DNA of 64,000 nucleotides. It comes from Gammaproteobacteria bacterium (GTDB lineage: Bacteria > Pseudomonadota > Gammaproteobacteria > Steroidobacterales > Steroidobacteraceae). This document shows, in pieces, positions 8,662 to 46,429 of the stretch (position 1 is its first letter; each line of letters begins with the position of its first letter). The position numbers and the translations under genes are program-made. Below the pieces are notes generated by a model, which saw only the letters and a list, made by a program, of their open reading frames with translations, had not been told where the DNA came from and did not search any database. The stretch is from positions 1 through 64,000 of the forward strand of contig RFOD01000007.1 of NCBI GenBank assembly GCA_009926865.1. Direction: 5' to 3'.

Positions 8662-11600
8662 ATGTCGTCCAACGGCGCGGCTAGTCCAATGCCGACGGTG
8701 GTGCCCCCACCCGACGCACGTATCAACCCCCTGTCCGATCGGTCCGCTTGGGAGCGCGATCGCGAGGCCTGTCAGCGAGACCCTGGGCGCTATCACGGCG
8801 ATATCGCGCGGCGGGAACTCCATTGGTTCGATCCCACTTTTGGCGATAGCGGCGCCTGGATCCGCTTTGATGCGGCCCGCGGCACATGGAGGGGCTATGA
8901 CGCGCGGACGGCTGCTGAGCTTGCTGCGAACGCGCTCGCCGGTCGTGATGCGTCCTATTACCCCTGGTCGTTGGCGCTGGATACGCGCGACGCCCCCTAT
9001 TTCCGCTGGTTTAGTGGTGCGCTCACCAACGCCTGCTTTAATGAAGTCGACCGGCACGTCCTCGAGGGGTATGGCGAAGAAGTCGCCCTGTGGTTCGAAG
9101 GTGATCGCTGGGACCAATCATTAAATGAAGGTCGAGGCGGACCGGTGACCAGTTATTCGGTCACACGTCAGCGCCTCATGTTTGAAGTAGCTCGCTGTGC
9201 CATCGCACTTGAGCGTCTCGGACTTCGGGCAGGTGATCGCGTTGCCATCAACATGCCGAATATCCCCGAGCAGATTTACTGGACTCTCGCGTGCAAGCGT
9301 CTAGGCGTGGTGTATACGCCGGTGTTCGGTGGTTTCAGTGATAAAACGCTATCCGACCGAATCCATAACGCCGGTGCTCGAGTGGTCATCACGGCGGATG
9401 GGGGCTTTCGAAACGCGCAGATCGTCGCGTTCAAAGAGGCCTATACCGACCCAGCGCTCGATGGCTATGTCCCGATTGAGTCGGCGTTAGCGGCGGTGAC
9501 CGATGCCTTACGGGCGCAGTCAGTTCCTCTGGATATCAGCACTGAGATTTTGCATAGCCTACAGACTCAGTTGGCCAATGAAATTACCTTAGAACGTTCG
9601 GATGTCATGCGCGTCGTGGGTCAGGCGCTTGAGCGTTTACCGCAACTCGTCTCCGCAGAGGCAAGTCGTATTCGAACCGCTTTGGCGTCGGCGCTGGTGG
9701 CCGTTCCGCCACGGGTGGATACGGTGATCGTCGTACGTCATACCGGACAGCCCGATCTACTTTGGCGCCCCGAGCGCGATCGTTGGGCGCATGAATTGTT
9801 GGCGCAAGCCGAACAAGAATTACTGCAAGCCGCGAACGCCGCGGGCCACTCGGTAGCCGATGTGGCCGCGCTATGCGCACTTGATGGCCCCGCTTTTTGC
9901 GCCGCCGTCTGGTCGATCTCCGCGCCTCGTCCTGTCGATGCCGAGTTTCCGCTATTTTTTATTTACACCTCGGGCTCCACCGGTAAGCCCAAAGGAGTCG
10001 TGCACGTCCACGGCGGCTACGTTAGTGGTGTCGCGCACAGCATGCGTATCGCATTTGATGCGCAGCCACGGGATGTCATGTATGTGGTCGCAGACCCCGG
10101 CTGGATCACTGGCCAGAGTTACATGATTTGCGCTGCGCTGACGACACGCGTGACCACCGTCATTGCTGAGGGGGCCCCTGTTTTTCCGAGCTCCGGGCGC
10201 TTCGCAAGCATCATTGAGCGTTATCAGGTCAATATATTCAAAGCGGGCGTCACCTTTTTAAAGACGGTGATGAGTGATCCGCAAAATATTGAGGACGTAC
10301 GGGCGTACTCAATGAATTCCCTACGCGTCGCCACTTTCTGTGCAGAGCCTACATCGCCCGCCGTTCAAGAATTCGGTATGAAGTGGGTTACGCCTTGGTA
10401 TATCAACTCTTATTGGGCTACAGAGCACGGTGGTATCGTCTGGACTCATTTCTTTGGTAACCATGACTTCCCGCTCCGACCGGATGCGCACACTTATCCC
10501 CTTCCTTGGGTGCAGGGTGATGTCTGGGTGGCCGATAGCGAGCCAGATGAATCAGGTTCGGTCACGGCGCGAGTGGCTGCTGATGGTGAGAAAGGCGAAA
10601 TCATTATCGAGGCGCCTTATCCCTATCTTTGTCGCACGATATGGGGTGATACCGACAATTTCCGCGTCGATGGTAATCGCATCACAGCAGCTTGGCGCGG
10701 GGATATCGAGCGTTATACCAACACCTATTGGCGCCGCTGGAAGGGAAAGCTGGCTTACACCCAAGGCGACTTTGCGGTGCGTCATGCGGATGGCAGCTTT
10801 TCGTTACACGGCCGATCTGACGATGTCATTAACGTTTCGGGGCATCGTTTGGGCACCGAAGAAATTGAAGGCGCCATTCTGCGTGATAAGCAGATTCATG
10901 CTGATTCGCCCGTTGGTAATGTCATCGTGGTGGGCGCCCCTCATGCACAAAAAGGTCTGACCCCACTCGCCTTTGTAGTTCCCGCACCAGGCCGTCATTT
11001 GGCTGCTGAGGACCGCCGTCGCTTAGTCGAGACAGTTCGACAGGAAAAAGGCCAAGTCGCCATTCCAGAAGATTTCATTGAAGTCCGACAATTTCCCGAG
11101 ACTCGTAGCGGGAAATACATGCGACGTATGGTGCGTGCATTGGTCGAGGGCCAACCGGTCGGCGATACCTCGACCCTACGCAATCCAGAGGCAATCAATG
11201 AACTCGCACGCGTCATTGATGAGTGGCAGGCGCAGCAACGGGTCGCCGATGAGCAGCGAATTTTCGAGGACTATCGATATTTTCGTGTGCAGTATCACGA
11301 CGCGATTGCCGCTGCTGAGCACGCACGCATCGCACTCGTCATCGTCCGTAACCCACCGGTGAATGCGCTTAACGAGCGCGCATTGGATGAGCTCAATATC
11401 GTCATCGATCACCTCGCCCGGCGAGACGACGTCAAAGTCATTATTTTTACCGGTGCCGGTACGAGCGCTTTTGTTGCCGGAGCCGATATTCGCCAGTTGT
11501 TGGAAGATATACACACCCTTGATGAAGCCTTGCCTTTACCTAATAACGCACACTTAGCTTTTCGTAAGATTGAATCTTTGAATAAGCCGGCAATTGCGGC

Positions 11601-14134
11601 CATCAATGGTGTTGCGCTGGGTGGGGGGATGGAATTCGCCATGGCGTGTCATATTCGTGTGGCGGAGCCGATCGCGCAGTTTGGACAACCTGAGGTACGT
11701 CTTAACTTATTACCTGGATATGGCGGCACTCAGCGTTTACCGCGCTTATTGGAACTAGCGGACCACCGGGCTCCACTCGTACGCGCCATGGAAATCCTTG
11801 CGGGCGGTAGAACCTACACCGCCGATGAGTTGTATACCGACGGGATGTTGCAGGCGCTCGCCACGTCCGGCGAAGACGTGGTCAGCCTGGCAAGTCGACT
11901 CGCCATCGAGTACGTCAAGGCGCCGAGGGGTCGAGGGTTGATCGCCCGTGAGTTTGCGCGACGCAAGGCGGCCGAGGCGTCATGGCTGCAACCCGGGCGT
12001 GACTCGCTCACTGAGGCGATGCAGCATCCCCTGGTCCGCGCGTTACAGGCGCAAGCTGAGGCTGTCGGACGTAGCGCCACCTTGCAGCGAATCCTTGATG
12101 CGGTGCACACCGGATGGCAGCAGGGAATCACCATCGGGCTGAAACGCGAGGCCCAGGTTTTCGCCGAGGCAATCGTGGATCCTGCCGGTGGAAAGGCGGG
12201 GATAAGGGCTTTCTTTGATAAACAAAGTGCGCCCTTACCGACCAAGCCTGAGGGCCGGCCTGCTATGAAAGACGCGCGTCGCTTACAGCGCCGAGGTCAG
12301 CTATTACCCATTGGTGCGCCATTCTTCCCAGGGCTCACCCCGATACCTAAATGGCAATATGGACATGCGGTCATCAAGGATCCGCTAACGGGCGCCCCCG
12401 CTCACGGCCTGCCGCGAATCGCTGAACAGCAAATTCTATTACCGGTACCGGAGCCATCTGCTAACGAGGCTGTGGTGTACGTTTTGGCATCAGAAGTCAA
12501 CTTCAATGATATCTGGGCCATTACCGGTATTCCGGTATCACCTTTTGATAATCATGATCTCGACTATCAAGTGACCGGTTCAGGCGGGATTGCCTTGATC
12601 GCCTCCCTAGGTGACGAAAACGCGAGGGCCGGCTCAAAGTCGGTGATCTTGTCACTATTTATTCGGGGCAAAGCGAATTGCTGTCGCCGCTCGCAGGCCG
12701 TGATCCCATGTACGCAGGCTTCTCCATTCAGGGATATGAGACGGATACCGGCAGTCACCAGCAATTTCTGTGCGTACAGGGGCCACAATTACATCCGGTA
12801 CCCCCCGATCTCACATTAGAAGCTGCTGGGTCCTATGTGCTGAATTTAGGGACCGTGGTTCGAGCGTTATTCACCACTCTCAAAGTCCAAAGGAACCGTA
12901 GTATTTTCATTGAGGGTGCGGCGACTGGTACGGGCTTCGAGGCGCTTAAAAGCGCCGCTCGGCATGGGCTCTGCACGGTGGGCGGCGTATCGAGTGAAGA
13001 GCGGGCGGCATTCATCAAAGCCGAAGGCGCGTCGGGCGCGCTCAATCGCAAGGACAGTCAATGGGCTCAGGCCTGGTGCCCGATGACCCCGAAGCGATCT
13101 GCCAATGGGAGGCAGAGGGTGCGCCGTTGCTTGAGGCGCTGCGGGCACAAACAGGCGGGCGCTTAGCTGATTATGTTGTGTCACACGCAGGTGAACAGGC
13201 GTTCCCGCGCTCCTTTCAACTGCTCGCTGAAGGCGGAAAGTTAACGTTCTACGGCGCAACAAGCGGGTATTGGTTCTCGTTCGTCGGCAAGGCTGGCAGT
13301 GCATCACCCGAGAGCATGCTCGAGCGTGCTGAGTTAGCCGCGGGCGAAGCGGTGCTGCTGTACTACGGGGTCGACAGTGCGGAGTTGCTGGACGCCACCG
13401 GGCTAGAGGCCATCGAAGCGGTACGCGCTGCGGGCGCGCGACTAGTGGTCGCGACCTATAGCGATGCGCAGCGCGAATTTGTCCAATCTTTGGGTTTTGG
13501 GGAGGCTGTGCGCGGTGTGGTTTCACTCGAGGAAATTCAGCGTAAAGAAGGCGCTGATTTTGAGTGGCCGGATGCGCTACCTCGCATGCCAGATTCCAAG
13601 ACCGATACGACACGCTTCAAAGAGGCGGTACGTCGCTACCAAGAGCGCACGATGAAGCCGTTTGGTAGTGCCATCGGCCGCTGGTTACGCTCAGCGGACA
13701 ATCCGCGGGGATACCCCGACCTAATCATTGAGCGTGCGGGGCACGATACGCTGGCGGCCTCGACTTCCTTGATCAAGCCGTTCACGGGACGGGTCGTTTA
13801 CTGTGAATCGATGCAGCATCGTCGGTACACCTTTTACGCGCCGCAGGTCTGGATGCGTCAACGTCGTATCTTCATGCCGACCGCCACGATTGCCGGTACG
13901 CATTTGTGTAATGCCTTTGAGGTGACGCGCATGAACGATCTGATCGCAGCGGGTCGGTTAGATGTGAGCGAACCTTTGATGGTGCCGTGGTCAGAACTTC
14001 CGGTAGCGCATCAGGCCATGTGGGACAACACGCACGCCGGTGCGAACTACGTCCTCAATCACGCCTTACCGGCGAGCGGCCTTAAATCGCGGGACGAGCT
14101 CTATCAGGCATGGGGTGCGCAAGATGGCCGCTAA
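8662..14134 (+). CDS. pcs: Propionyl-CoA synthase, trifunctional (3-hydroxypropionate to propionyl-CoA); frame broken twice
   Basis: Converts 3-hydroxypropionate, CoA, ATP and NADPH to propionyl-CoA. Three fused domains are readable. An AMP-forming acyl-CoA synthetase spans about 1-870 with P-loop YTSGSTGKPKG at 435-445. An enoyl-CoA hydratase spans about 880-1230 with VAGADI at 938-943, INGVALGGGMEFAMAC at 981-996 and the GQPEVRLNLLPGYGGTQRL block, retaining both crotonase glutamates. A zinc-independent MDR-type enoyl-CoA reductase ends the protein, with GAATGTGFEALKSA as nucleotide loop. The frame breaks near 12615-12632 and again near 13065-13073, so it reads as 8662-12819, about 12615-13166 and 13061-14134. 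Restoring one base at each site gives 1824 aa, matching the roughly 1820-aa Chloroflexus enzyme. Both breaks fall inside the reductase domain, so a natural split into working proteins is unlikely; sequencing error is favoured over decay. The end overlaps mcr by 11 bp. Confidence 0.92.
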
Positions 14135-17100
14135 ACGTCGCGCCCGATCGGGTCGTCTCGCCGGCAAGGTGAGTCTTGTTACCGGCGCGGGCGGCAATAT
14201 TGGCCAACATATCGTTACTCGCTATTTACAGGAAGGCGCGACCGTCGTCATGGTCGGCCGGAATATCGAAAAGTTAGAAGCGGCCCGAAAAAGCGCACTC
14301 AAATTAAGTGGGGCACCGGCGACGTCCGCTTGGGTTCTGCCTTTCGATGCATCTGATTCTGGTCAAGCTCGATTTGGTATCGAGCAGGTGATCAAAAAAT
14401 ACGGTCGCCTCGATATTTTGGTGAATAACGCGGGTTCTGCGGGACCTAAACAGACGATCGATCGCCTGCCTCTCTCCAAGGAGCAGCTGGCCTCACTACA
14501 AGCGACCGGCGCTAAAGATACCGAGACCGTCGCGGACGCGGCTGGAAATTTACTCGGCATTACTTGGAATATGGTTCGCGCGGCTTCGCCGCATCTTTTG
14601 GCCGGTTCAAGTATTGTCAATGTCTCCACCATTTTTTCCCGTACACGATACTTTGGGCGTGCGGCTTACGTCGTCCCTAAAGCGGCCTTGAATGCGTTTT
14701 CACGACAGCTTGCTTTACAGCTAGGTTCACGCGGGATTCGCGTCAACGTCGTCTATCCCGGGCCAATCGAAAGCGAGCGGATTCGCGGTGCCTTTGCCGC
14801 CATGGATGATTTACGACGGGCACCACAAGGCACGACCGCCAAAGAGTTTTTAGCGACGATGGCGCTTGCGAGTGCTGATGGGGAGGACACGCCACAACAT
14901 CGGTTCCCCACGATGGATGATGTCGCCAACACAATCGTCTTTCTAGGTAGCGACGAGTCGCGCGCGTTCAGTATGCAGGGCTTTGAAGTTACTCACGGTA
15001 TGCAGGTGGTGCAAGAGTCGCGCTCAACTTGGGTGTCTCGGCCAGAGCTACGCACTGTCGATGGAACCGGATCGCTGATTTTAGTTGCGAGCGGTGATCA
15101 GATCGCCGATGCCTTGACCGTGGCGCGTATCCAATCGCGTTGCGGGGCAAAGGTTTTATTGGGTGTAGGTAGTGAAGAAGCGGTCCAATCCGTGCGCAGT
15201 GCCTTGCAGTCCAATGACATCGATGCGCGCATCGAACCCATTTTGTGTGACCGGAGTCGTGCAGAGACCTTGCAGCAATCTTTGGCGCCCTACACCAATG
15301 GTTCGTCCATTCATGGGGCGATCGTGCTGCCTGCGTTTGGTGCGTGGCGTTTCCAGGCACCGCTCGCTGAGGCGAGCGATACCGACGTCGATGCCTTTCT
15401 GAAGGCGGAGCTCACCGGAGCCATTGCGATCGTTCGCGAGTTGTCGCAGCTTTGGCGACGCTATAGTGCAGCCGGCGCCGGACCGCGTGTGCTCTTTATG
15501 TCTAACGGTAACGATACCGCGGGTAATACCTACGGCGATATCTTGCGCGCAGGCGTTGAGCAACTGATCCGCGTTTGGCGCGATGAAAGCCGTACGCAGA
15601 CCGCATCCGGTGAACGGGCGGCAGCCGAATGGTCGAACCAGATCATTCGGTGGACCAATGCGGAGGAGCACGGGCTGCTATTCGCGGCGAGCCAGGCGGC
15701 ACGCTTGCTCTATACCAAACGTCGGGTGCCGCAAGTCAATTTATATATGCCCGCAACGATTGTTGATGCGACCGGATCAACTCGACCCAATTTCGGATGG
15801 ATTGAGTCTTTGATGGGTTTGCATTTGGGCAAGTGCGTGCTGATTACTGGCGGTTCAGGCGGGATCGGCGGTCAGCTCGCACGACTCTTGGCGATCGCTG
15901 GCGCGCGAGTAATGCTGACTGCGCGTGGTAAAGACGCCTTACGCGCCCTGCGGGAGTCGATCGTGCAAGAGCTTGAGGAGATCGGCTACAACCGCCCTGC
16001 CGAACGCGTGCGAATGTTGGCTGATGTGGATGTGGGTAACGAGGCCTCATTGGTCAAAGCGGTATCGACCACGATCGAGGCTTTCGGTCGAGTCGACTAT
16101 TTAATCAATAACGCAGGTGTTGCGGGTGCCGAGCAGATGGTGGTCGATATGGACCCGACAATCTGGCGCAGTACGCTCCAAGCCAATTTAAATTCCAATT
16201 ATTCTTTGATTGAAAAGTTAGTACCTTTGATGAAGCGCCAAGGGTCAGGCTACATTCTCAACGTGAGCTCTTATTTTGGCGGCGAGAAATATATTGCCGT
16301 GCCCTACCCCAACCGTGCTGATTACGCAGTATCCAAGGCAGGCCAACGGGCTCTAGTTGAAAATCTTGCGCGCTTTGTCGGCCCAGAAATTCAGATTAAT
16401 GCGATTGCACCAGGGCCGGTCGAAGGGGAGCGGCTTGCGGGGAAAGACGGCAAGGCGGGTCTATTTTTGCGTCGCGCTCGTTTGATTTTGGAAAACAAGC
16501 GACTGAATTTGGTACATGGCGCGGTACTTGACTGTCTGAGTCAGGGCAAGACATTGACTGACATTTGGCAGCAGTTAGCCGCGAATGATGTGGGCTTATT
16601 ACAGCAGACTAATATTTTTGCACCCTTGCAAAAAATAAGCTCACGTATTCGTCGCGATGTCCATGCGAGCGACGAAGTGGACTACAGCTCCTTACATTTT
16701 TTGCTCACGAGCCAGATGGCCAAGCGTTTGATTACACGCCTACGTAACGGGGGTAGCTTGGCGACAGAGGCTGACTATGCAGAGGCATCTCGCTGGGCTG
16801 AGCAATTACCCGAGCCGACCGAACCCTTTCTAGACCCAGCTCGGACGCAGACGGAGGCTGCCCGTATTCGTGATGGGGTGCTCGGCATGCTGCATTTGAA
16901 ACGGATGCCAACTGAGCTCGACGTGGCATTAGCGACGGTTTTTTTCATGGCGGATCGCGCGATTTCCGGCGAAACCTTTGAGCCCTCGGGTGGCTTACAG
17001 CAAGAGCGAACGATTACTGAGCGAGAACTGTTTGGTCGTGCTAAGCCCGAACGCGTACGGCAAATGGAAGGTGAAACCATTTGGTTGATCGGCGAGCATA

Positions 17101-17786
17101 TGGTTGAGCCTTTAGCCGCGGTGGCCCGGCTTTTTCTTGAGGAAGGTCGTGTCGGTCGCGTAGTCGTGCTTTCGCAAACAGCCGGGGCGCAGCAAGCGTT
17201 ACAGCAATCCCTCCAAGGTATTAAGCAGCTAGACCGAGTGAGTTATCGCGTCATGGGTGATGCTCTTGAAGATAGCCTAGATCAGGCTTTAGCTCAGGGT
17301 ACGCCTGCCGCAGTGATCTCCACTCCACTAGCGCCAATCCCGCGCGGTATGTTTGGCATCGAAGGGGATACTCATCTCGATGCCGCTGGCTTCTCTGAGT
17401 TGATCGAAACTAATCTGACGCAACACTTCCGTGTGGCGCGCAAAGTCAGCCTCTATCAAGGCGCCCGTCTGATTTTGGTGTCACCGGATGTACCCGTCGG
17501 CGGCAGCTTGGCGCAATTTGCGATGGCAAATTTCATCAAAACGACGCTCCATGCGTTCACGGCCACACTGGGCGTTGAAAACGAACGACTCTCAACCTCT
17601 GTCCCGGTGAACCAAGTCAATTTGACGCGACGCATGCGCAGCGAAGAGCCCCGTGATGCCGTTGAACAGGCCGAGGAATACCAACGATTTGCACACGCCG
17701 TCTTGTTAGCGGCGGCGCCCATTGTGGAGGCGCAGGAGAGTCGCTATCGAGCACGTATCTATCGAGGTCTCGCCATCACGGTGTGA
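14124..17786 (+). CDS. mcr: Bifunctional NADPH-dependent malonyl-CoA reductase (malonyl-CoA to 3-hydroxypropionate)
   Basis: Two short-chain dehydrogenase halves in one 1220-aa chain, essentially the length of Chloroflexus aurantiacus Mcr. By family knowledge the C-terminal half reduces malonyl-CoA to malonate semialdehyde and the N-terminal half reduces that to 3-hydroxypropionate. N half: NADPH loop TGAGGNIG at 20-27, LVNNAGSAG, serine-bearing VNVSTIFSR, catalytic Tyr182 and Lys186 in YVVPK. C half: loop TGGSGGIG at 575-582, LINNAGVAG, LNVSSYFGGEK, Tyr734 and Lys738 in YAVSK. Long stretches such as VPYPNRADYAVSKAGQRA and ANFIKTTLHAFTAT, and the C-terminal IYRGLAITV, fit Mcr specifically rather than generic SDRs. 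The ATG lies inside the last codons of pcs, implying translational coupling; an in-frame ATG at 14040 would lie within pcs and is rejected. Intact frame throughout. Confidence 0.96.
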   Translation: MAAKRRARSGRLAGKVSLVTGAGGNIGQHIVTRYLQEGATVVMVGRNIEKLEAARKSALKLSGAPATSAWVLPFDASDSGQARFGIEQVIKKYGRLDILVNNAGSAGPKQTIDRLPLSKEQLASLQATGAKDTETVADAAGNLLGITWNMVRAASPHLLAGSSIVNVSTIFSRTRYFGRAAYVVPKAALNAFSRQLALQLGSRGIRVNVVYPGPIESERIRGAFAAMDDLRRAPQGTTAKEFLATMALASADGEDTPQHRFPTMDDVANTIVFLGSDESRAFSMQGFEVTHGMQVVQESRSTWVSRPELRTVDGTGSLILVASGDQIADALTVARIQSRCGAKVLLGVGSEEAVQSVRSALQSNDIDARIEPILCDRSRAETLQQSLAPYTNGSSIHGAIVLPAFGAWRFQAPLAEASDTDVDAFLKAELTGAIAIVRELSQLWRRYSAAGAGPRVLFMSNGNDTAGNTYGDILRAGVEQLIRVWRDESRTQTASGERAAAEWSNQIIRWTNAEEHGLLFAASQAARLLYTKRRVPQVNLYMPATIVDATGSTRPNFGWIESLMGLHLGKCVLITGGSGGIGGQLARLLAIAGARVMLTARGKDALRALRESIVQELEEIGYNRPAERVRMLADVDVGNEASLVKAVSTTIEAFGRVDYLINNAGVAGAEQMVVDMDPTIWRSTLQANLNSNYSLIEKLVPLMKRQGSGYILNVSSYFGGEKYIAVPYPNRADYAVSKAGQRALVENLARFVGPEIQINAIAPGPVEGERLAGKDGKAGLFLRRARLILENKRLNLVHGAVLDCLSQGKTLTDIWQQLAANDVGLLQQTNIFAPLQKISSRIRRDVHASDEVDYSSLHFLLTSQMAKRLITRLRNGGSLATEADYAEASRWAEQLPEPTEPFLDPARTQTEAARIRDGVLGMLHLKRMPTELDVALATVFFMADRAISGETFEPSGGLQQERTITERELFGRAKPERVRQMEGETIWLIGEHMVEPLAAVARLFLEEGRVGRVVVLSQTAGAQQALQQSLQGIKQLDRVSYRVMGDALEDSLDQALAQGTPAAVISTPLAPIPRGMFGIEGDTHLDAAGFSELIETNLTQHFRVARKVSLYQGARLILVSPDVPVGGSLAQFAMANFIKTTLHAFTATLGVENERLSTSVPVNQVNLTRRMRSEEPRDAVEQAEEYQRFAHAVLLAAAPIVEAQESRYRARIYRGLAITV

Positions 17787-17812
17787 GAGCGGACTGCGTT
17801 AAAGTGTCGGGG

Positions 17813-18457
17813 ATGAAACTTGCAGTCATTCCCGTTACCCCGTTCCAGCAAAACTGCTCGCTGCTGATCTGTGAGCGCACGGGAGCTGCTGCGGTCGTTG
17901 ATCCGGGCGGCGACTTATCGCGCATCGAATCCAAGCTAAGTGAGGCTGGATGCCAGCTCGAAAAAATCTTCATCACGCACGGGCATCTCGATCACGCGGG
18001 CGCCACAGCCGCTTTGGCGCGCGAGTACCGCGTACCGATTGAGGGTCCTCACCCTGATGATGCATTTTGGATTGAGCAGATGCCTGCTCAGGCCAAATTA
18101 TTTGGCTTTCCAGCTGCCGAAACATTTAAGCCTGACCGATGGTTGCAACAGGGTGATCAAGTACAGTTCGGTGAGCAAGCTTTGGAAGTCTTGCATTGCC
18201 CAGGACACACGCCAGGCCACATTGTCTTCTTTGATCGAAGTGGTCGATTAGCGATTGTCGGTGATGTGTTATTTGCAGGGTCGATCGGGCGAACAGACTT
18301 TCCTCGGGGCAATCATCAGGATCTGATCCGCTCTATTCGTGAGCGACTTTTTCCCTTGGGCGATGATGTTCGGTTCTTGCCCGGGCATGGGCCTATGTCA
18401 ACATTCGGCGCTGAACGCCAGACTAACCCCTTCGTCGCCGATCACGTTGTTGATTAA
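17813..18457 (+). CDS. gloC: Glyoxalase II-like MBL-fold hydrolase, GloC/YcbL type
   Basis: Small metallo-beta-lactamase-fold hydrolase of 214 aa, close in length and motif order to E. coli YcbL (GloC), which hydrolyses S-lactoylglutathione. It opens with MKLAVIPVTPFQQNCS; the metal signature THGHLDH is at 55-61 (His56, His58, Asp60, His61), followed by HCPGHTPGHIVFF, GDVLFAGSIGRTDFPRG and LPGHGP. It lacks the C-terminal domain of classical GloB. The ATG at 17813 is preferred over an in-frame GTG at 17783. It starts 26 bp after mcr on the same strand and may be cotranscribed with pcs-mcr. The convergent ctaB gene ends one base away. Confidence 0.88.
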   Translation: MKLAVIPVTPFQQNCSLLICERTGAAAVVDPGGDLSRIESKLSEAGCQLEKIFITHGHLDHAGATAALAREYRVPIEGPHPDDAFWIEQMPAQAKLFGFPAAETFKPDRWLQQGDQVQFGEQALEVLHCPGHTPGHIVFFDRSGRLAIVGDVLFAGSIGRTDFPRGNHQDLIRSIRERLFPLGDDVRFLPGHGPMSTFGAERQTNPFVADHVVD

Positions 18458-20446: not shown

Positions 20447-21059
20447 TCAGCCGATATGCGACAGTTTCAATAATTTTTCGAGATCCGAAAGTAACCCTTT
20501 GGGATTTTCACGGATATCAAAGCGCATCATGAGATTCCCAAGGGGGTCCACAATGTAAATGTAGGGCGTTCCCTCGGTGACGGGAAAGTTTTGCAGCCAT
20601 TGCTTGATCTACTGCCTGTAGCGCTATCACGCCCGCATGCTCTTGGCTTAAAAACTCTCTATCGCAGCAATCACCCACCGCGATGTAAACACGTTGGACA
20701 CGATCCATGTCTTCAGCCAGTAGTAACCGTGTTTGTCGCATCATCCATAACGCATCGCGACATTCGGTATTGCAGCGGCCATCGGCGACATGAACAAGCG
20801 ACCACTTTTCTTTGAAAATATCTACTGAGGCAGTCTTTCCGTCGAGATCGTAGAGCGCAACAGGCTCCAGCGTGATGACGGGCGAGATGAGCTCGGCATG
20901 ATTAGTGCTTCCCGCAGGCCGCCAGCCGCCGAGGTAGTAAAGCCAAAATGCACCCAGTAAGGGAACAAAGAATAGAGCGGCTAAACCGATCAGCGCACCT
21001 TTGCCTTGTCCTGGCCGAACGCTTGGGTTGACTGCATCACCGTTCACTTTACTTCTCAT
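20447..21059 (-). CDS. SCO-like cytochrome oxidase assembly protein (frameshifted)
   Basis: Inner-membrane protein with one N-terminal transmembrane segment (about 22-46) and a thioredoxin-like domain containing CNTEC, a CxxxC pattern like the copper site of SCO proteins. The continuous frame from 21059 runs only to 20517 and ends in aberrant sequence. From about 20610 the other frame reads KQWLQNFPVTEGTPYIYIVD then NLMMRFDIRENP to a TGA at 20447-20449, a convincing thioredoxin-fold end. Removing one base near 20600-20613 joins them into 203 aa. Position between surf1 and ctaA matches the small conserved gene found there in Pseudomonas-type cox clusters. Role in oxidase copper or heme insertion is inferred from context. 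Confidence 0.75.
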
Positions 21060-21828
21060 CTCCTGTCTCTCGGCGCTGCAGATTTAGACTCACATATAAG
21101 ATCAGCAGCACCACCGCAAAACTCCACCACTGAATGGCATAAGACCAGTTCTGCTCAGGTCCCTTTCCTGCGGCAAACGGCGCCCAGTCGCGCCGATAAC
21201 CATATCCACTATCTGCATCCAGCAGGAGCTGGCGTGTTTCGAGTAGCGCAGGATCGCTCCATCCCATTGCAGCCGCTAAATCCGATGTCTCGGGGAACGT
21301 GGTTAATCGCGGCCACGGTCCCGACAGTGCCGGTGCTAGACGACCACTTGCCAATCCAGCTCTTGGCAACTCATCAACCTGACCCGTAATTCGTACTAAC
21401 TGATTACGGTGCAGTTCGGGAAAACCCGCTTGGAGGTCGGGCAGTTGATCGCGAAAACCCGCGAAGGGCAACCAACCTCGATTCACCAATAGCCAACGAC
21501 CATCTTCTAGTTCGAAGGGCGTTAATACTTCAAATCCTGCGCGACCCTCCCGAGTCCGGTTATCCAGTAAAAACTGCCGCTCGAGATCCCAACGACCTTG
21601 GGCTTGGATCCGCGCGTAGCGATCCAGTTCCTGCATCGAGCGGTTACCTAAATATTCGGCCTGCGCTGGGCGGACGACGAAATCATCAAGCAACTGTTGC
21701 TTGAACTCTGCCCGCCCCCATTGCCAGCGTCCGAGTACGATAAAGAGCGTCAGCAGGGCAATCGTCAGTCCCGTCATCAGCCATGACGGTGCAAACACTC
21801 GACGGCCGACGGGGATTCGAACAGGCAC
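21049..21828 (-). CDS. SURF1 family cytochrome oxidase assembly protein
   Basis: Protein of 259 aa with transmembrane segments at both ends (about 16-33 and 225-245) flanking a periplasmic domain, the SURF1 topology. Recognisable elements include LGRWQWGRAEFK after the first segment, LLDNRTREGRAGFEVLTPF, LLVNRGWLPF and YAIQWWSFA at the second segment. SURF1 helps deliver heme A to subunit I of cytochrome c oxidase. It overlaps the SCO-like gene by 11 bp. The divergent small DUF2909 gene starts 44 bp away. Confidence 0.93.
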   Translation of the reverse strand: MPVRIPVGRRVFAPSWLMTGLTIALLTLFIVLGRWQWGRAEFKQQLLDDFVVRPAQAEYLGNRSMQELDRYARIQAQGRWDLERQFLLDNRTREGRAGFEVLTPFELEDGRWLLVNRGWLPFAGFRDQLPDLQAGFPELHRNQLVRITGQVDELPRAGLASGRLAPALSGPWPRLTTFPETSDLAAAMGWSDPALLETRQLLLDADSGYGYRRDWAPFAAGKGPEQNWSYAIQWWSFAVVLLILYVSLNLQRRETGDEK

Positions 21829-33051: not shown

Positions 33052-33663
33052 TCAAATGGCTACTACGCCTGAGGATTCTGCCGTTGCAATGGCTGGCATG
33101 AATACTTCGTATAGATCAAAAGAATAAAGTCCTAGATTAAACGCCGAATGTCGTATCCAAAGATTACCGGTTATTAGGCCACAAGTGTGTAAGGCTCTTT
33201 GCATGACCCAGGACTGTTCTAGCCGAGTGTAGCGAGGTGCTGCTCGCTGTAGATCACTGCGTGCAGCGAGCGCTTCACCGAGCGTAGTACGCCCGATCGC
33301 GATCAGCCACGGGTGCGCTTCAGCCGTTCTGGCTGGGATACGCGTATGCGCAAACAGCCATGGCTCATGAGCACAACTCATGGTGATTTCACGCACGTAT
33401 TCGCCTTGCAGTAGACCCTCGTGTAACACCTGCATATTGAAAGCGTCACCGGCGGCGGCTCGTATCCGCTCGGTCAACAAGCCTGGCGTTTGCAACCAAG
33501 ATAGCAGGCGGGCGTCAGCCACATAGCAATTAAGTGCGCTAGCGGGCAGCCACATGGCCGTAGCGGGTACAGCCGGTGGCAGAAGTACTGCGTCAGTAGT
33601 GTCAGTTATCAAAGACTGACTATTCAATGATTTCTCAGCCAATTCGAGCGTACCTATCATCAT
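33052..33663 (-). CDS. ubiC: Chorismate--pyruvate lyase
   Basis: Soluble enzyme of 203 aa making 4-hydroxybenzoate and pyruvate from chorismate, the first committed ubiquinone step. It shares with UbiC the central TRIPARTAEAHPWLIAIGRT region and the LGEALAARSDLQR stretch, and a C-terminal SAFNLGLYSFDLYEVFMPA resembling the UbiC active-site tail. The family diverges strongly, so context (ubiA directly downstream) adds weight. Two adjacent ATG codons, at 33663 and 33660, are possible starts. It overlaps the recG end by 29 bp. Confidence 0.88.
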   Translation of the reverse strand: MMIGTLELAEKSLNSQSLITDTTDAVLLPPAVPATAMWLPASALNCYVADARLLSWLQTPGLLTERIRAAAGDAFNMQVLHEGLLQGEYVREITMSCAHEPWLFAHTRIPARTAEAHPWLIAIGRTTLGEALAARSDLQRAAPRYTRLEQSWVMQRALHTCGLITGNLWIRHSAFNLGLYSFDLYEVFMPAIATAESSGVVAI

Positions 33664-35696
33664 GACCGATCCAGCGCGCGGTCAACGGCGCGATTGTATC
33701 TGGGTATTGGTCGAGAATCTGACTGGCTGCACTCTGTACGGCTGGCAGTAGATCCGCATCGCGCTCGAGATCGGCCACTCTCATCCGAGCCAGCCCCGTT
33801 TGACGAGTGCCTAGGAGTTCGCCCGGCCCGCGTAGCTGTAGATCGCGCCGAGCAATCTCAAAGCCGTCGGTGCTATCGCGAATCGCATTGAGACGCTCGC
33901 GTGCCAGACCGCCGAGCGGCGGTCGATACAAAAGAACGCAGGTGCTTTCAGCGCTCCCTCGTCCGACCCGACCTCTTAATTGATGTAGTTGTGCAAGGCC
34001 CATTCTTTCAGCGTTCTCGATCACCATCACGCTGGCATTCGGGACATCCACACCTACTTCAATGACGGTTGTGGCTACCAAAAGCTGCGTTTGGCCTGCT
34101 TTGAATTCATTCATGAGCCGATCTTTGTCACGCGGTGGCATTCGACCATGGATCAGTGCGACCTGCAGTGAGGGTAGGGCGGCCGTCAAGATCGCGGCCA
34201 TTTCTTCGGCCGCCTGACACTGTAATTCTTCGGACTCTTCAATCAACGGACACACCCAGTAGGCTTGTCGACCTGTTTGACACGCGCGCTCGACGCGTTT
34301 GACTACTTCATCGCGGCGGCTATCGGGCACCACTACCGTTTGTACAGGCGTTCGACCGGGGGGTAGCTCATCAATGATAGAGAGATCCAGATCCGCGTAG
34401 GCCGTCATCGCTAAAGTGCGCGGGATGGGTGTCGCCGTCATGATCAGTTGGTGAGGTCGATGCTCTGGGCCGTTACCTTTTTCCGCGAGCTGTAAACGCT
34501 GCTGGACGCCGAATCGATGTTGCTCGTCAACGATGACGAGGGCTAAGTCTTTGAAACTTACGCCTTGCTGAAAGAGGGCGTGGGTACCGACGAGCAGTGG
34601 TACTTCACCTTGTTGGGCCGCTTCGATCGCACTGCGTCGGGTGCGAGCGGGCTGCGAGCCACTTAACAAAGCCACCGTCACGCCCAATGGGCGGAACCAT
34701 TGATCGAGATTACGAAAATGCTGCTCAGCGAGCAGTTCCGTGGGCGCCATCAACGCAACCTGTCGTCCGCTACCCAAGGCTTGTGCTGCCGCGACGGCGG
34801 CCACCACGGTTTTGCCGCAACCCACATCACCCTGCACTAGCCGTAACATGGGTGTCGTTCTTTGCAAGTCTTCAGTGATATCTTTGATAACTTTTTGCTG
34901 AGCGCCAGTTAAGGAAAACGATAGTGAGTTAATAAAACGGCTAGCGAGCTGCTGCAGATCTTCTAAGCTGTGGGCCTGATCGACTCGCGCGGATTCACGA
35001 AGCTTTCGCAGTGCAACCTGATGGGTGAGTAATTCTTCAAATGCGAGGCGGCGTTGCGCGGGGTGGCATCCCGCATCGAGCTCTTCAAGCGCCACATCGC
35101 GGGGTGGTTCATGCACGATACGCAAAGCGTCACCTAGTGCCGGTAACCCGAGGGCGCGAGTCATCTCTGCAGGTAACCAATCTTTGATACCACTCACGCC
35201 GAACTTCATCGCTTGCTTGATGAGTGATCGCAGTCGCGCCTGACTCACACCTTCAGTCAACGGGTAAATGGGCGTCAGCACCTCTTCTAAAGTAGCGTTT
35301 TTGTCATACACCCGCTGATATTCTGGGTGGACCATTTCAAGGCCCATCGGACCTCGTCTGATTTCACCAAAACAGCGGAGGGTGGCGCCCCGCGCGAGGC
35401 CTTGTTGTTGACTCGAGGAAAAATGAAAAAAGCGTAAGGTCAAAAAGCCTGAGCCATCGGCGAGTCGACATAACAATTGTCGGCGCCGTCAGTTGAATTT
35501 GCCCCTCGATGACGGCACGCGTGCCAGCTAGAACGCTACCGATGGGTTGAATACGCGTCCGATCTTCATATCGGGTGGGGAGAACAAAGAGCAGGTCCTG
35601 TACCTGCTCTACCCCAAGGACGGCCAAGCGTTGTGCTAGCGCTGCACCAACCCCCCGCAGTACTGTGATTGACTGCTGTTCTTTGGGGATATCCAC
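33635..35696 (-). CDS. recG: ATP-dependent DNA helicase RecG (frameshifted near the N-terminus)
   Basis: Branch-migration helicase for fork rescue and recombination. The first segment, from GTG at 35696, reads VLRGVGAALAQRLAVLGV and LLFVLPTRYEDRTRI, the RecG wedge-domain entry, to about 35490. The remainder, 33635 to about 35490, lies in another frame: SGFLTLRFFHFSSSQQQGL, Walker A VQGDVGCGKTVVAA, DEQHRFG (DExH), TATPIPRT, VATTVIEVGVDVPNAS and QLRGRVGRG. Removing one base in ACGGCGCC around 35486-35492 joins them into 686 aa, close to E. coli's 693. The break leaves no start with a proper wedge domain, so consensus error is more likely than a functional truncation. Confidence 0.9.
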
Positions 35697-45034: not shown

Positions 45035-45146
45035 CCACACTCGCGTACGAATTCATCAGGTGTGCCTTGATTCCGACACTCAGGCGTGTCAATTTTGTCA
45101 CACGTCGCGCTAATGCGACGGATTGCTGACAGACGAAGCCAAAGCT

Positions 45147-46429
45147 ATGACTCAGAAAACCTACGAACTCCTTGATCCTGCCTCCGGTAAGAAATCCTCG
45201 CTGCCTTTACGTTCAGGCACCATCGGTCCTGATGTGGTCGATATCGCTGCTCTAAACAAGGAGCATGGCGTATTCACTTTTGACCCGGGCTTCATGGCGA
45301 CCGCCAGTACTGAAAGCAAGGTGACCTACATTGATGGCGATGCGGGCGTGTTGCTCTATCGCGGTTACCCGATCGAACAGTTGGCAGCTCAGAGTTCATT
45401 CGTCGAAGTCGCGTATTTGTTGTTGTATGGCGATCTTCCCAATGCCAAACAGTTGGCAGATTTCACCGTCAGCATTCAGCGGCACACCATGATCAATGAG
45501 TCGTTGCTGCGCATGTTCAACGGCTTTCATTACGATGCGCATCCGATGGCCATGGTGAGCGGCATCATCGCTTCGATGTCCGCGTTTTATCACGACTCCA
45601 TGGACATCAATAACCCGCGCCATCGCGAGATTTTTGCCCATCGCATCATTGCCAAACTGCGGCATACAAGCGCGCGCTCGGACAGCCGTTTATCTATCCG
45701 CGAAATGATTTGGACTACTGCAGCAATCTGTTGCACATGTTTTATGCCGTTCCGTGTGAGCCTTATCACATCGATCCGCTCGCATCGCAGGCGCTAGACT
45801 TGTTGCTGATTTTGCACGCGGACCACGAGCAGAATGCGAGCACATCGACCGTGCGCTTGGCTGGCTCCACTGGGGCAAACCCTTATGCAGCGATTTCTGC
45901 CGGTGTGTCAGCTCTCTGGGGTCCTGCTCATGGCGGCGCCAATGAGGCTGTCCTTGAAATGCTCGAAGAGATCGGCTCGGTCGATAACATTCCGAAATTT
46001 CTTGCACAGGTCAAAGATAAGTCGAGTAATGTACGTTTGATGGGCTTCGGTCATCGTGTGTACAAAAACTTTGATCCGCGAGCGAAGATTATCCGCGAGA
46101 TGTGCCATAAGGTTCTCGCTAAGATGGGGCGTGCTGATAACCCTTTGCTCGAGTTGGCGCAGCGTCTCGAAGAAATCGCTTTACAAGACGAATATTTTGT
46201 TTCTCGTAAACTGTACCCAAATGTTGATTTTTACTCGGGTATTATTTACAGCGCTTTGAACATTCCACGCTCGATGTTCACGGTCATGTTTGCGATCGCC
46301 CGCACGGCTGGCTGGGTATCACATTGGCTGGAGATGATTGCCGATCCGTCGATGAAAATCGGTCGGCCGCGACAGCTGTATACCGGCCCTGCTAAGCGCG
46401 ACTATCAGCCGATCGCCAAACGCAGCTGA
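45147..46429 (+). CDS. gltA: Citrate synthase, type II (small internal deletion breaks the frame)
   Basis: TCA-cycle entry enzyme. The first frame (45147 to about 45660) contains [32 protein letters not shown] and the [16 protein letters not shown] block. The second (about 45659-46429) contains [49 protein letters not shown] and [14 protein letters not shown], covering the catalytic histidines, then a normal end. Around 45657-45662 the expected conserved PT(I/M)AAM segment after AKL is missing, consistent with loss of about 10 bp (1 modulo 3) with TGC at both edges. Repair gives about 430 aa, the usual length. Enzyme would be inactive if the deletion is real; assembly error is favoured for such a central gene. 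Confidence 0.9.

What the first reader, a model, noticed from the sequence alone, without database searches (positions are those of the whole stretch)
8662..17786. Overlapping pcs-mcr gene pair: a 3-hydroxypropionate route from malonyl-CoA to propionyl-CoA in a gammaproteobacterium
Two large multidomain enzymes specific to the 3-hydroxypropionate bi-cycle lie back to back with an 11-bp overlap. Mcr is full length (about 1220 aa, two SDR halves with both YxxxK sites) and Pcs has all three domains. Established knowledge: in Chloroflexus these enzymes turn malonyl-CoA into propionyl-CoA; homologues have, as I recall, been noted in a few marine proteobacteria such as Erythrobacter NAP1 and OM60/NOR5 relatives, without a fully demonstrated role. 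Inference: with acetyl-CoA and propionyl-CoA carboxylases encoded elsewhere, this could form a mixotrophic CO2/acetate assimilation or redox-balancing route to succinyl-CoA. The tight operon differs from what I recall of Chloroflexus, where the genes are apart.
Basis: partly seen in the sequence, partly recalled or inferred. Interest (0 to 1): 0.9.

Follow-up and report, generated by a model that had tools for sequence, protein, structure and literature searches.

The report
Half 3-hydroxypropionate pathway in RuBisCO-less phototroph
An uncultured bacterium with photosynthesis genes but no detected RuBisCO carries a linked gene pair for turning malonyl-CoA into propionyl-CoA, probably a way to build CO2 and spare electrons into cell carbon; the enzymes are known, their fixed place in this phototrophic genus is the interesting part.

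Summary
The pcs-mcr pair is real. Mcr (14124-17786) is full length with every checked catalytic residue. The same window has single-base frame breaks in gltA and recG, so assembly indels are likelier than a dead gene; of 20 genus loci, 14 show one complete pcs ORF, 2 are open but cut by the contig end, 4 (this one included) are broken. The genome also holds accA, accD, a propionyl-CoA-carboxylase-type pair, methylmalonyl-CoA mutase, MeaB and an epimerase-like ORF: an open route from acetyl-CoA to succinyl-CoA taking up two bicarbonates. New: the genome has pufLMC and puhABE; of 24 genus genomes 21 have Mcr and 20 have PufL/M, while an even draw of the class gave Mcr in 2 of 369. Likeliest role: light-supported CO2 co-assimilation and NADPH disposal, as already proposed in print for Porphyrobacter. 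Known enzymes, new host clade; activity untested.

The parts
8662..14134 (+). pcs, propionyl-CoA synthase (three-domain), read in frame 1 to about 12618, frame 3 to about 13067-13091, frame 2 to the stop
   Evidence: AMP-binding (aa 165-652 of the first ORF), AMP-binding_C (747-818), ECH_1 (887-1089), then crotonyl-CoA-reductase-like pieces; match to 6eqo
12614..12622 (+). first frame break in pcs: one base fewer than in relatives, at or near the run GAAAAC
   Evidence: pcs is one complete ORF in 14 of 20 genus loci
13067..13091 (+). second frame break in pcs: one base fewer than in relatives, exact place not fixed
14124..17786 (+). mcr, bifunctional malonyl-CoA reductase; N half to about 15761 (alcohol dehydrogenase side), C half from about 15762 (CoA-acylating aldehyde dehydrogenase side)
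   Evidence: nine of nine C-half residues named for the Roseiflexus enzyme conserved in 32 of 32 rows, 29 of them different
17783..18457 (+). MBL-fold hydrolase gene directly behind mcr (start codon overlaps or follows its stop)
   Evidence: Pfam Lactamase_B 132 bits; below the gloB cut-off (95 of 201 bits); directly behind mcr in 18 of 20 genus genomes whose stretch goes past mcr; role in the pathway unknown

Best explanation
pcs and mcr form a closely linked, probably translationally coupled pair that makes propionyl-CoA from malonyl-CoA. Mcr reduces malonyl-CoA to 3-hydroxypropionate with 2 NADPH; Pcs activates it to the CoA ester, dehydrates it to acrylyl-CoA and reduces that to propionyl-CoA with a third NADPH. 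Acetyl-CoA carboxylase supplies malonyl-CoA; propionyl-CoA carboxylase, epimerase and methylmalonyl-CoA mutase (contig C8) carry the product to succinyl-CoA. Net: an open, anaplerotic route that takes up two bicarbonates and three NADPH per acetyl-CoA. In this bacterium with reaction-centre genes and no RuBisCO it most likely serves light-supported co-assimilation of organic carbon and CO2 and disposal of excess NADPH. Shown: the genes, their domains, the Mcr active-site residues, the neighbourhood, the co-occurrence with PufL/M. Inferred: enzyme activities (from characterised relatives), direction of flux, the link to light, and that pcs is intact in the living cell.
For: Mcr full length with catalytic residues. 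Pcs domains and match to 6eqo. accA and accD above cut-offs; mutase and MeaB above cut-offs, with a carboxyltransferase, a 694-aa biotin carboxylase and an epimerase-like ORF in one run on C8. pufL, pufM, pufC, puhA, puhB, puhE above cut-offs in the own genome; PufL/M in 20 of 24 genus genomes; RuBisCO in 0 of 24. Mcr in 21 of 24. Mcr and PufL/M together in 19 of 24; outside the genus 5 of 6 chosen Mcr-bearing genomes have PufL/M and 0 of 5 chosen Mcr-lacking ones. Frame breaks elsewhere in the window, gltA and recG included, and ordinary relative distances of pcs and mcr, favour an intact pcs. In Porphyrobacter sp. ULC335 3-hydroxypropionate genes are up by day (PMC10674011, passages).
Against: pcs has two frame breaks here, and pcs is also broken in G008, G010 and G011, so 4 of 20 genus loci, while the 18 full-length Mcr matches have no stop inside. 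G006 has PufL/M but no Mcr; G005 and G010 have Mcr but no PufL/M found (both about 77% complete); the genome of L008 has Mcr without PufL/M. The Mcr-PufL/M association is not significant inside the genus (Fisher p = 0.06). The carboxyltransferase and the epimerase-like ORF score below curated cut-offs. Isocitrate lyase is present, so the route is not needed for acetate growth. No expression or activity data.
Confidence: 0.58

Rival explanations
1. Pcs is really broken in this species: the gene is decaying, and Mcr alone makes 3-hydroxypropionate or the route is being lost.
For: Two frame breaks in pcs while mcr is intact; pcs frame breaks at other places in G008, G010 and G011; pcs relative distance 1.49 against a median of 1.18 for 29 neighbours.
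Against: Three other frame breaks in the window, in gltA, recG and a small ORF, with missing and extra bases; the Pcs pieces behind the breaks are as conserved as the first (72, 79, 78% identity to G001); 1.49 lies within the range 0.72-2.51 of neighbours.
Confidence: 0.13
2. The pair mainly serves another need: uptake and use of 3-hydroxypropionate or acrylate from outside (Pcs), or supply of propionyl-CoA and methylmalonyl-CoA for odd-chain lipids or other products, with little net CO2 assimilation and no tie to light.
For: The cut MBL hydrolase link and the open route leave such uses possible; Garritano and co-authors proposed assimilation of organic substrates for Actinobacteriota with an incomplete pathway (PMC9802188, passages); Mcr without PufL/M in G005, G010 and the genome of L008.
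Against: Use of outside 3-hydroxypropionate would not need Mcr, which is tightly linked to Pcs; co-occurrence with PufL/M. No transporter or lipid gene was tested.
Confidence: 0.18
3. A full 3-hydroxypropionate bi-cycle, autotrophic CO2 fixation in this genome.
For: Mct-like genes in five other genus genomes, G003, G010, G011, G012, G021 (604-673 bits in four, two fragments in G010), with an HpcH/HpaI lyase gene directly behind in four of them, not in G011.
Against: The own genome (96.9% complete) has no Mct match above 88 bits and only CitE-like HpcH/HpaI pieces near contig ends. Mch and Meh were not searched for.
Confidence: 0.05

Closest known systems
Partial 3-hydroxypropionate route of Porphyrobacter sp. 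ULC335 and Erythrobacter sp. NAP1 (PMC10674011, passages)
   Same: Phototroph without a full carbon-fixation pathway that has key 3-hydroxypropionate enzymes; CO2 co-assimilation proposed; genes up by day in ULC335.
   Different: Alphaproteobacteria (recalled), isolates; here a gammaproteobacterial genus known from MAGs, with pcs and mcr overlapping. Gene order in Porphyrobacter was not checked.
3-hydroxypropionate bi-cycle of Chloroflexus and Roseiflexus (PMC10470521, passages; otherwise recalled)
   Same: Homologous bifunctional Mcr with the same active-site residues and Acc, carboxylase and mutase steps to succinyl-CoA.
   Different: No convincing Mct and no Mcl-type gene behind one in this genome, so only the first half; isocitrate lyase present.
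3-hydroxypropionate genes in Burkholderiales (Ga0077523, Burkholderiaceae) and Gemmatimonadota MAGs (PMC9802188, passages)
   Same: Same class in the GTDB sense for the Burkholderiales ones, photosynthesis predicted there too; our L007 and L008 are Gemmatimonadota with the same pcs-mcr pair.
   Different: Another order as far as can be told, and a fuller pathway reported. The paper's supplement was not seen, so I cannot say whether members of this genus were in its data.

Membership tests
Bifunctional malonyl-CoA reductase (Mcr) | About 1220 aa, two SDR halves, end-to-end homology to characterised Mcr | tested here: met
   C half 54.4, 53.9 and 53.0% identical to 6k8s, 8hi5 and 8aet
Bifunctional malonyl-CoA reductase (Mcr) | Catalytic and binding residues: SDR1 Thr165, Tyr172, Arg175, Tyr178, Lys182; SDR3 and beyond Ser731, Tyr743, Arg746, Tyr749, Lys753, Arg785, Leu795, Arg799, Arg1164 (Roseiflexus numbering) | tested here: met
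   C-half nine by script; the SDR1 five by eye on the alignment
[quoted passage not shown]
   No assay
Propionyl-CoA synthase (Pcs) | Ligase, dehydratase and reductase domains in one chain | tested here: inconclusive
   All three regions present, but the frame is broken twice in this assembly; one complete ORF in 14 of 20 genus loci and 4 of 4 outside
3-hydroxypropionate bi-cycle | Acetyl- and propionyl-CoA carboxylase, epimerase, methylmalonyl-CoA mutase | tested here: met
   accA, accD, mutase, MeaB above cut-offs; carboxyltransferase (797 of 999 bits) and epimerase-like ORF (45 of 115 bits) below cut-offs but in the same run of genes
3-hydroxypropionate bi-cycle | Mct, mesaconyl-C1-C4-CoA transferase (TIGR04253) | tested here: not met
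   Own best 88 bits, cut-off 725; no genome searched passes the cut-off, so the cut-off itself may be strict
3-hydroxypropionate bi-cycle | Malyl-/methylmalyl-/citramalyl-CoA lyase (Mcl) | tested here: inconclusive
   Only CitE-like HpcH/HpaI pieces near contig ends in the own genome
3-hydroxypropionate bi-cycle | Mesaconyl-CoA hydratases (Mch, Meh) | not tested
   The genome search cap reached (12 of 12)
3-hydroxypropionate/4-hydroxybutyrate cycle | 4-hydroxybutyryl-CoA dehydratase (PF11794 taken as its N domain, by recall) | tested here: not met
   0 of 24 genus genomes above the cut-off; one weak match in G016

The most novel reading that the evidence does not exclude
A genus-wide, light-powered, open CO2-assimilating module: phototrophic gammaproteobacteria without RuBisCO keep a coupled pcs-mcr pair as a main electron sink and CO2 entry, and the pair has moved as a unit between Gammaproteobacteria and Gemmatimonadota, perhaps along with photosynthesis genes.
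Probability: 0.33. Interest if true: 0.68.

Novelty: new member of a known kind. Interest (0 to 1): 0.46.

Why it matters
Bacteriochlorophyll-bearing bacteria without RuBisCO are usually seen as photoheterotrophs. A half 3-hydroxypropionate pathway kept across an uncultured genus (Mcr in 21 of 24 genomes) that mostly carries reaction centres (20 of 24) and shows no RuBisCO (0 of 24) makes it directly testable what such cells do with light-driven reducing power, and would add to CO2 budgets wherever they are abundant.

Tried and rejected
Complete bi-cycle in this genome: set aside for lack of a convincing Mct. HP/HB cycle: no PF11794 match above the cut-off in 24 genomes. Calvin cycle: no RuBisCO large-chain match in 24 genomes. 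Acetate growth as the sole purpose: isocitrate lyase is present. Pseudogene reading of pcs: weighed with window-wide frame breaks and relative distances and kept as a rival. Not searched, cap reached: crotonyl-CoA carboxylase, methylcitrate cycle, sulfur-oxidation genes, Mch, Meh. The Kentron paper (PMC6593406, passages) looked like a precedent but reports Mcr and Pcs absent. PMC11089705 (passages) reports an incomplete 3-hydroxypropionate bicycle in bloom phototrophs. PMC11599936 (passages) used the ligase domain of Erythrobacter NAP1 Pcs. Paper searches made; listings only, apart from the papers named. Nothing on this genus was recognised in them, but only open-licence PMC papers are held and the genus has no name here, so absence from print is not claimed.

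The Mcr tree used only the C-terminal half, and the tool warns that its long branches (Chloroflexus, Porphyrobacter, L086) may join falsely. No Pcs tree was built. The fold tools, RNA tools and annotated-record searches were not used.
Full report
OBSERVATION. The ORF 14040-17786 is an intact Mcr; its likely ATG is at 14124, giving an 11-nt overlap with the end of pcs at 14134. It aligns over nearly its whole length with solved Mcr chains (8hi4 1187 bits, 8hjw 1112 bits). 8HI4-8HI6 are the Roseiflexus castenholzii enzyme (PMC10470521, passages); the organisms of 8hjw/8aet (Chloroflexus) and 6k8s (Porphyrobacter dokdonensis) are recalled. The residues that paper names are present: nine of nine in the C half in 32 of 32 rows (29 different sequences), and five in SDR1 by eye on the alignment. 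Upstream, 8662-14134 codes for Pcs: an acetate-CoA-ligase-like region, an enoyl-CoA hydratase region and a crotonyl-CoA-reductase-like region, matching chain 6eqo. The table calls 6eqo acetyl-coenzyme A synthetase; that it is Erythrobacter NAP1 Pcs is recalled.

Pcs is not one frame. Its match to the intact Pcs of G001 runs in frame 1 to about 12645, in frame 3 from 12618 to 13106 and in frame 2 from 13076. Both steps are explained by one base fewer than expected, near 12618 and between about 13067 and 13091. I compared the window with syntenic stretches of two genus relatives, G001 and G013. Single-base frame breaks also occur in citrate synthase (about 45659, a base missing), recG (about 35491, a base extra) and a small ORF (about 20600, a base extra), each one frame in both relatives. 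Five breaks of both signs in 64 kb, two in core genes, look like sequencing or assembly indels. The Pcs pieces behind the breaks are as conserved as the first (72, 79, 78% identity to G001). The relative distance of pcs (1.49) and mcr (1.34) lies inside the range of 29 neighbouring genes (0.72-2.51) but above their median (1.18). So pcs is probably intact in the cell, but this is not proven. In the genus, 20 loci show pcs: 14 have one complete ORF of 1814-1861 aa, 2 (G003, G014) are open but cut by the contig end, and 4 (window, G008, G010, G011) have a frame break, at different places. The four loci outside the genus with pcs (L005, L007, L008, G025) are single ORFs.

CONTEXT AND SPREAD. pcs lies directly upstream of mcr in 19 of these 20 loci; in G011 they are about 2.6 kb apart. 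An mcr start codon overlapping the pcs stop by 4 nt is found in 18 of 20 genus loci (not in the window, 11 nt, nor in G011) and in 3 of 4 outside (L007, L008, G025; not L005). The MBL hydrolase gene follows mcr in 18 of 20 genus genomes whose stretch goes past mcr (not in G019, G011), and ctaB comes next on that side in 17 of 19 that reach it, with extra sequence between in G004, G008 and G020; gloB lies upstream in 13 of the 15 stretches that reach at least 1 kb beyond pcs (not seen in G019 and G021, the latter ending after 1.3 kb). In one search general SDR hits made every genome match, so I counted as Mcr only hits of 640 bits or more: 21 of 24 genus genomes (18 full length; G005, G010 and G012 in pieces at contig ends), none in G006, G016 and G022; among the 16 relatives outside the genus, only G025. 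In an even draw of the class 2 of 369 genomes have Mcr at E <= 1e-100: the own one and G064 (44% identity). Named relatives: Rhodocyclaceae (L004, no pcs within its 22 kb), Steroidobacteraceae (L005, L009), Gammaproteobacteria (L006) and two Gemmatimonadota (L007, L008); three further hits, in Nostoc, are 29-30% SDR matches. L006 and L009 lie on contigs of the same length as contigs of G013 and G005, so the genus probably includes MAGs labelled Gammaproteobacteria and Steroidobacteraceae (inference). In a tree of the C half the window falls with the genus members other than G011 (99/97), on a longer end branch than theirs; G025, of the same order, groups with the two Gemmatimonadota (97/93), which suggests transfer between phyla; the three PDB chains lie outside, on long branches.

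PATHWAY. Own genome: accA on C93 and accD on C39, above curated cut-offs. On C8 in one run: methylmalonyl-CoA mutase and MeaB (above cut-offs), a carboxyltransferase (TIGR01117 797 bits, cut-off 999), a 694-aa biotin carboxylase and a 158-aa epimerase-like ORF (TIGR03081 45 bits, cut-off 115; Glyoxalase_4 120 bits). Mutase-family matches occur in 23 of 24 genus genomes; in G007 and G022 they are IcmF-like only. Isocitrate lyase is present. Mct: own best 88 bits, cut-off 725; strong matches below the cut-off in G003, G011, G012, G021 and, in two pieces, G010, with an HpcH/HpaI lyase behind and a CoA-transferase in front in G003, G010, G012 and G021. Outside the genus, the genomes of L007 and L004 have Mct-like genes (688 and 529 bits), the other seven searched do not at E <= 1e-40. 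So the own genome has the first half only; some sister species may have more.

PHOTOTROPHY. The own genome carries pufL, pufM, pufC, puhA, puhB and puhE above curated cut-offs on C71. PufL/M: 20 of 24 genus genomes. RuBisCO large chain: 0 of 24. PF11794 above its cut-off: 0 of 24. Mcr and PufL/M: both in 19, Mcr only in 2 (G005, G010, each about 77% complete), PufL/M only in 1 (G006), neither in 2 (G016, G022). Eleven chosen genomes outside: of six with Mcr, five (G025, G064 and those of L004, L005, L007) have PufL/M and that of L008 does not; of five without Mcr, none has. Fisher p = 0.06 in the genus and 1.3e-4 pooled, but the genomes are related and partly chosen, so this is support, not proof.

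HOW IT WORKS. From established biochemistry of these enzymes (recalled; Mcr in PMC10470521, passages): acetyl-CoA + bicarbonate to malonyl-CoA; Mcr, 2 NADPH, to 3-hydroxypropionate; Pcs, ATP and NADPH, to propionyl-CoA; + bicarbonate to methylmalonyl-CoA; to succinyl-CoA. In a phototroph without RuBisCO this is both anaplerosis and an outlet for reductant. The tie to light is inference; in Porphyrobacter sp. ULC335 such genes are up by day and CO2 co-assimilation was proposed (PMC10674011, passages).

NOVELTY. The enzymes, the partial route and its tie to phototrophs are in print (PMC10674011; PMC9802188, passages). What I did not meet in the searches made is this genus, its overlapping pair across two phyla, and the genus-wide combination with reaction centres and without RuBisCO. 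Hence a new member of a known kind, of middling interest; the bolder reading is given as the novel case.

Noticed in passing
window 45123-46429 (gltA), 33635-35690 (recG), 20450-21170 (small ORF): Single-base frame breaks against two relatives in which each is one frame, pointing to indel errors in this assembly.
   Followed up: yes
L044 (G008), L051 (G010), L048 (G011): pcs has a frame break in three other genus genomes, each at another place, while mcr is open. Error or decay was not resolved.
   Followed up: partly
L077, L078, L079, L081 (G003, G021, G012, G010): CoA-transferase - Mct-like - HpcH/HpaI lyase run, a possible second half of the bi-cycle in sister species.
   Followed up: partly
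window 17783-18457: MBL-fold hydrolase gene directly behind mcr in 18 of 20 genus genomes whose stretch goes past mcr; its role in the pathway is unknown.
   Followed up: no
L090 (G000:C71): pufLMC and puhA-puhB-puhE with a dxs gene near the contig end: the window's genome is a phototroph by gene content.
   Followed up: yes
L049 (G025) with L007 and L008: A gammaproteobacterium of the same order has Mcr grouping with Gemmatimonadota (97/93), a sign of transfer between phyla.
   Followed up: partly
L004: mcr without pcs in the surrounding 22 kb in a MAG labelled Rhodocyclaceae, whose genome also has PufL/M and an Mct-like gene.
   Followed up: no
G016 and G022: Two 1.4-Mb genomes of the genus, each about 83% complete, lack Mcr and PufL/M; G016 has no mutase-family match and G022 only IcmF-like ones: perhaps joint loss in reduced lineages.
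   Followed up: no
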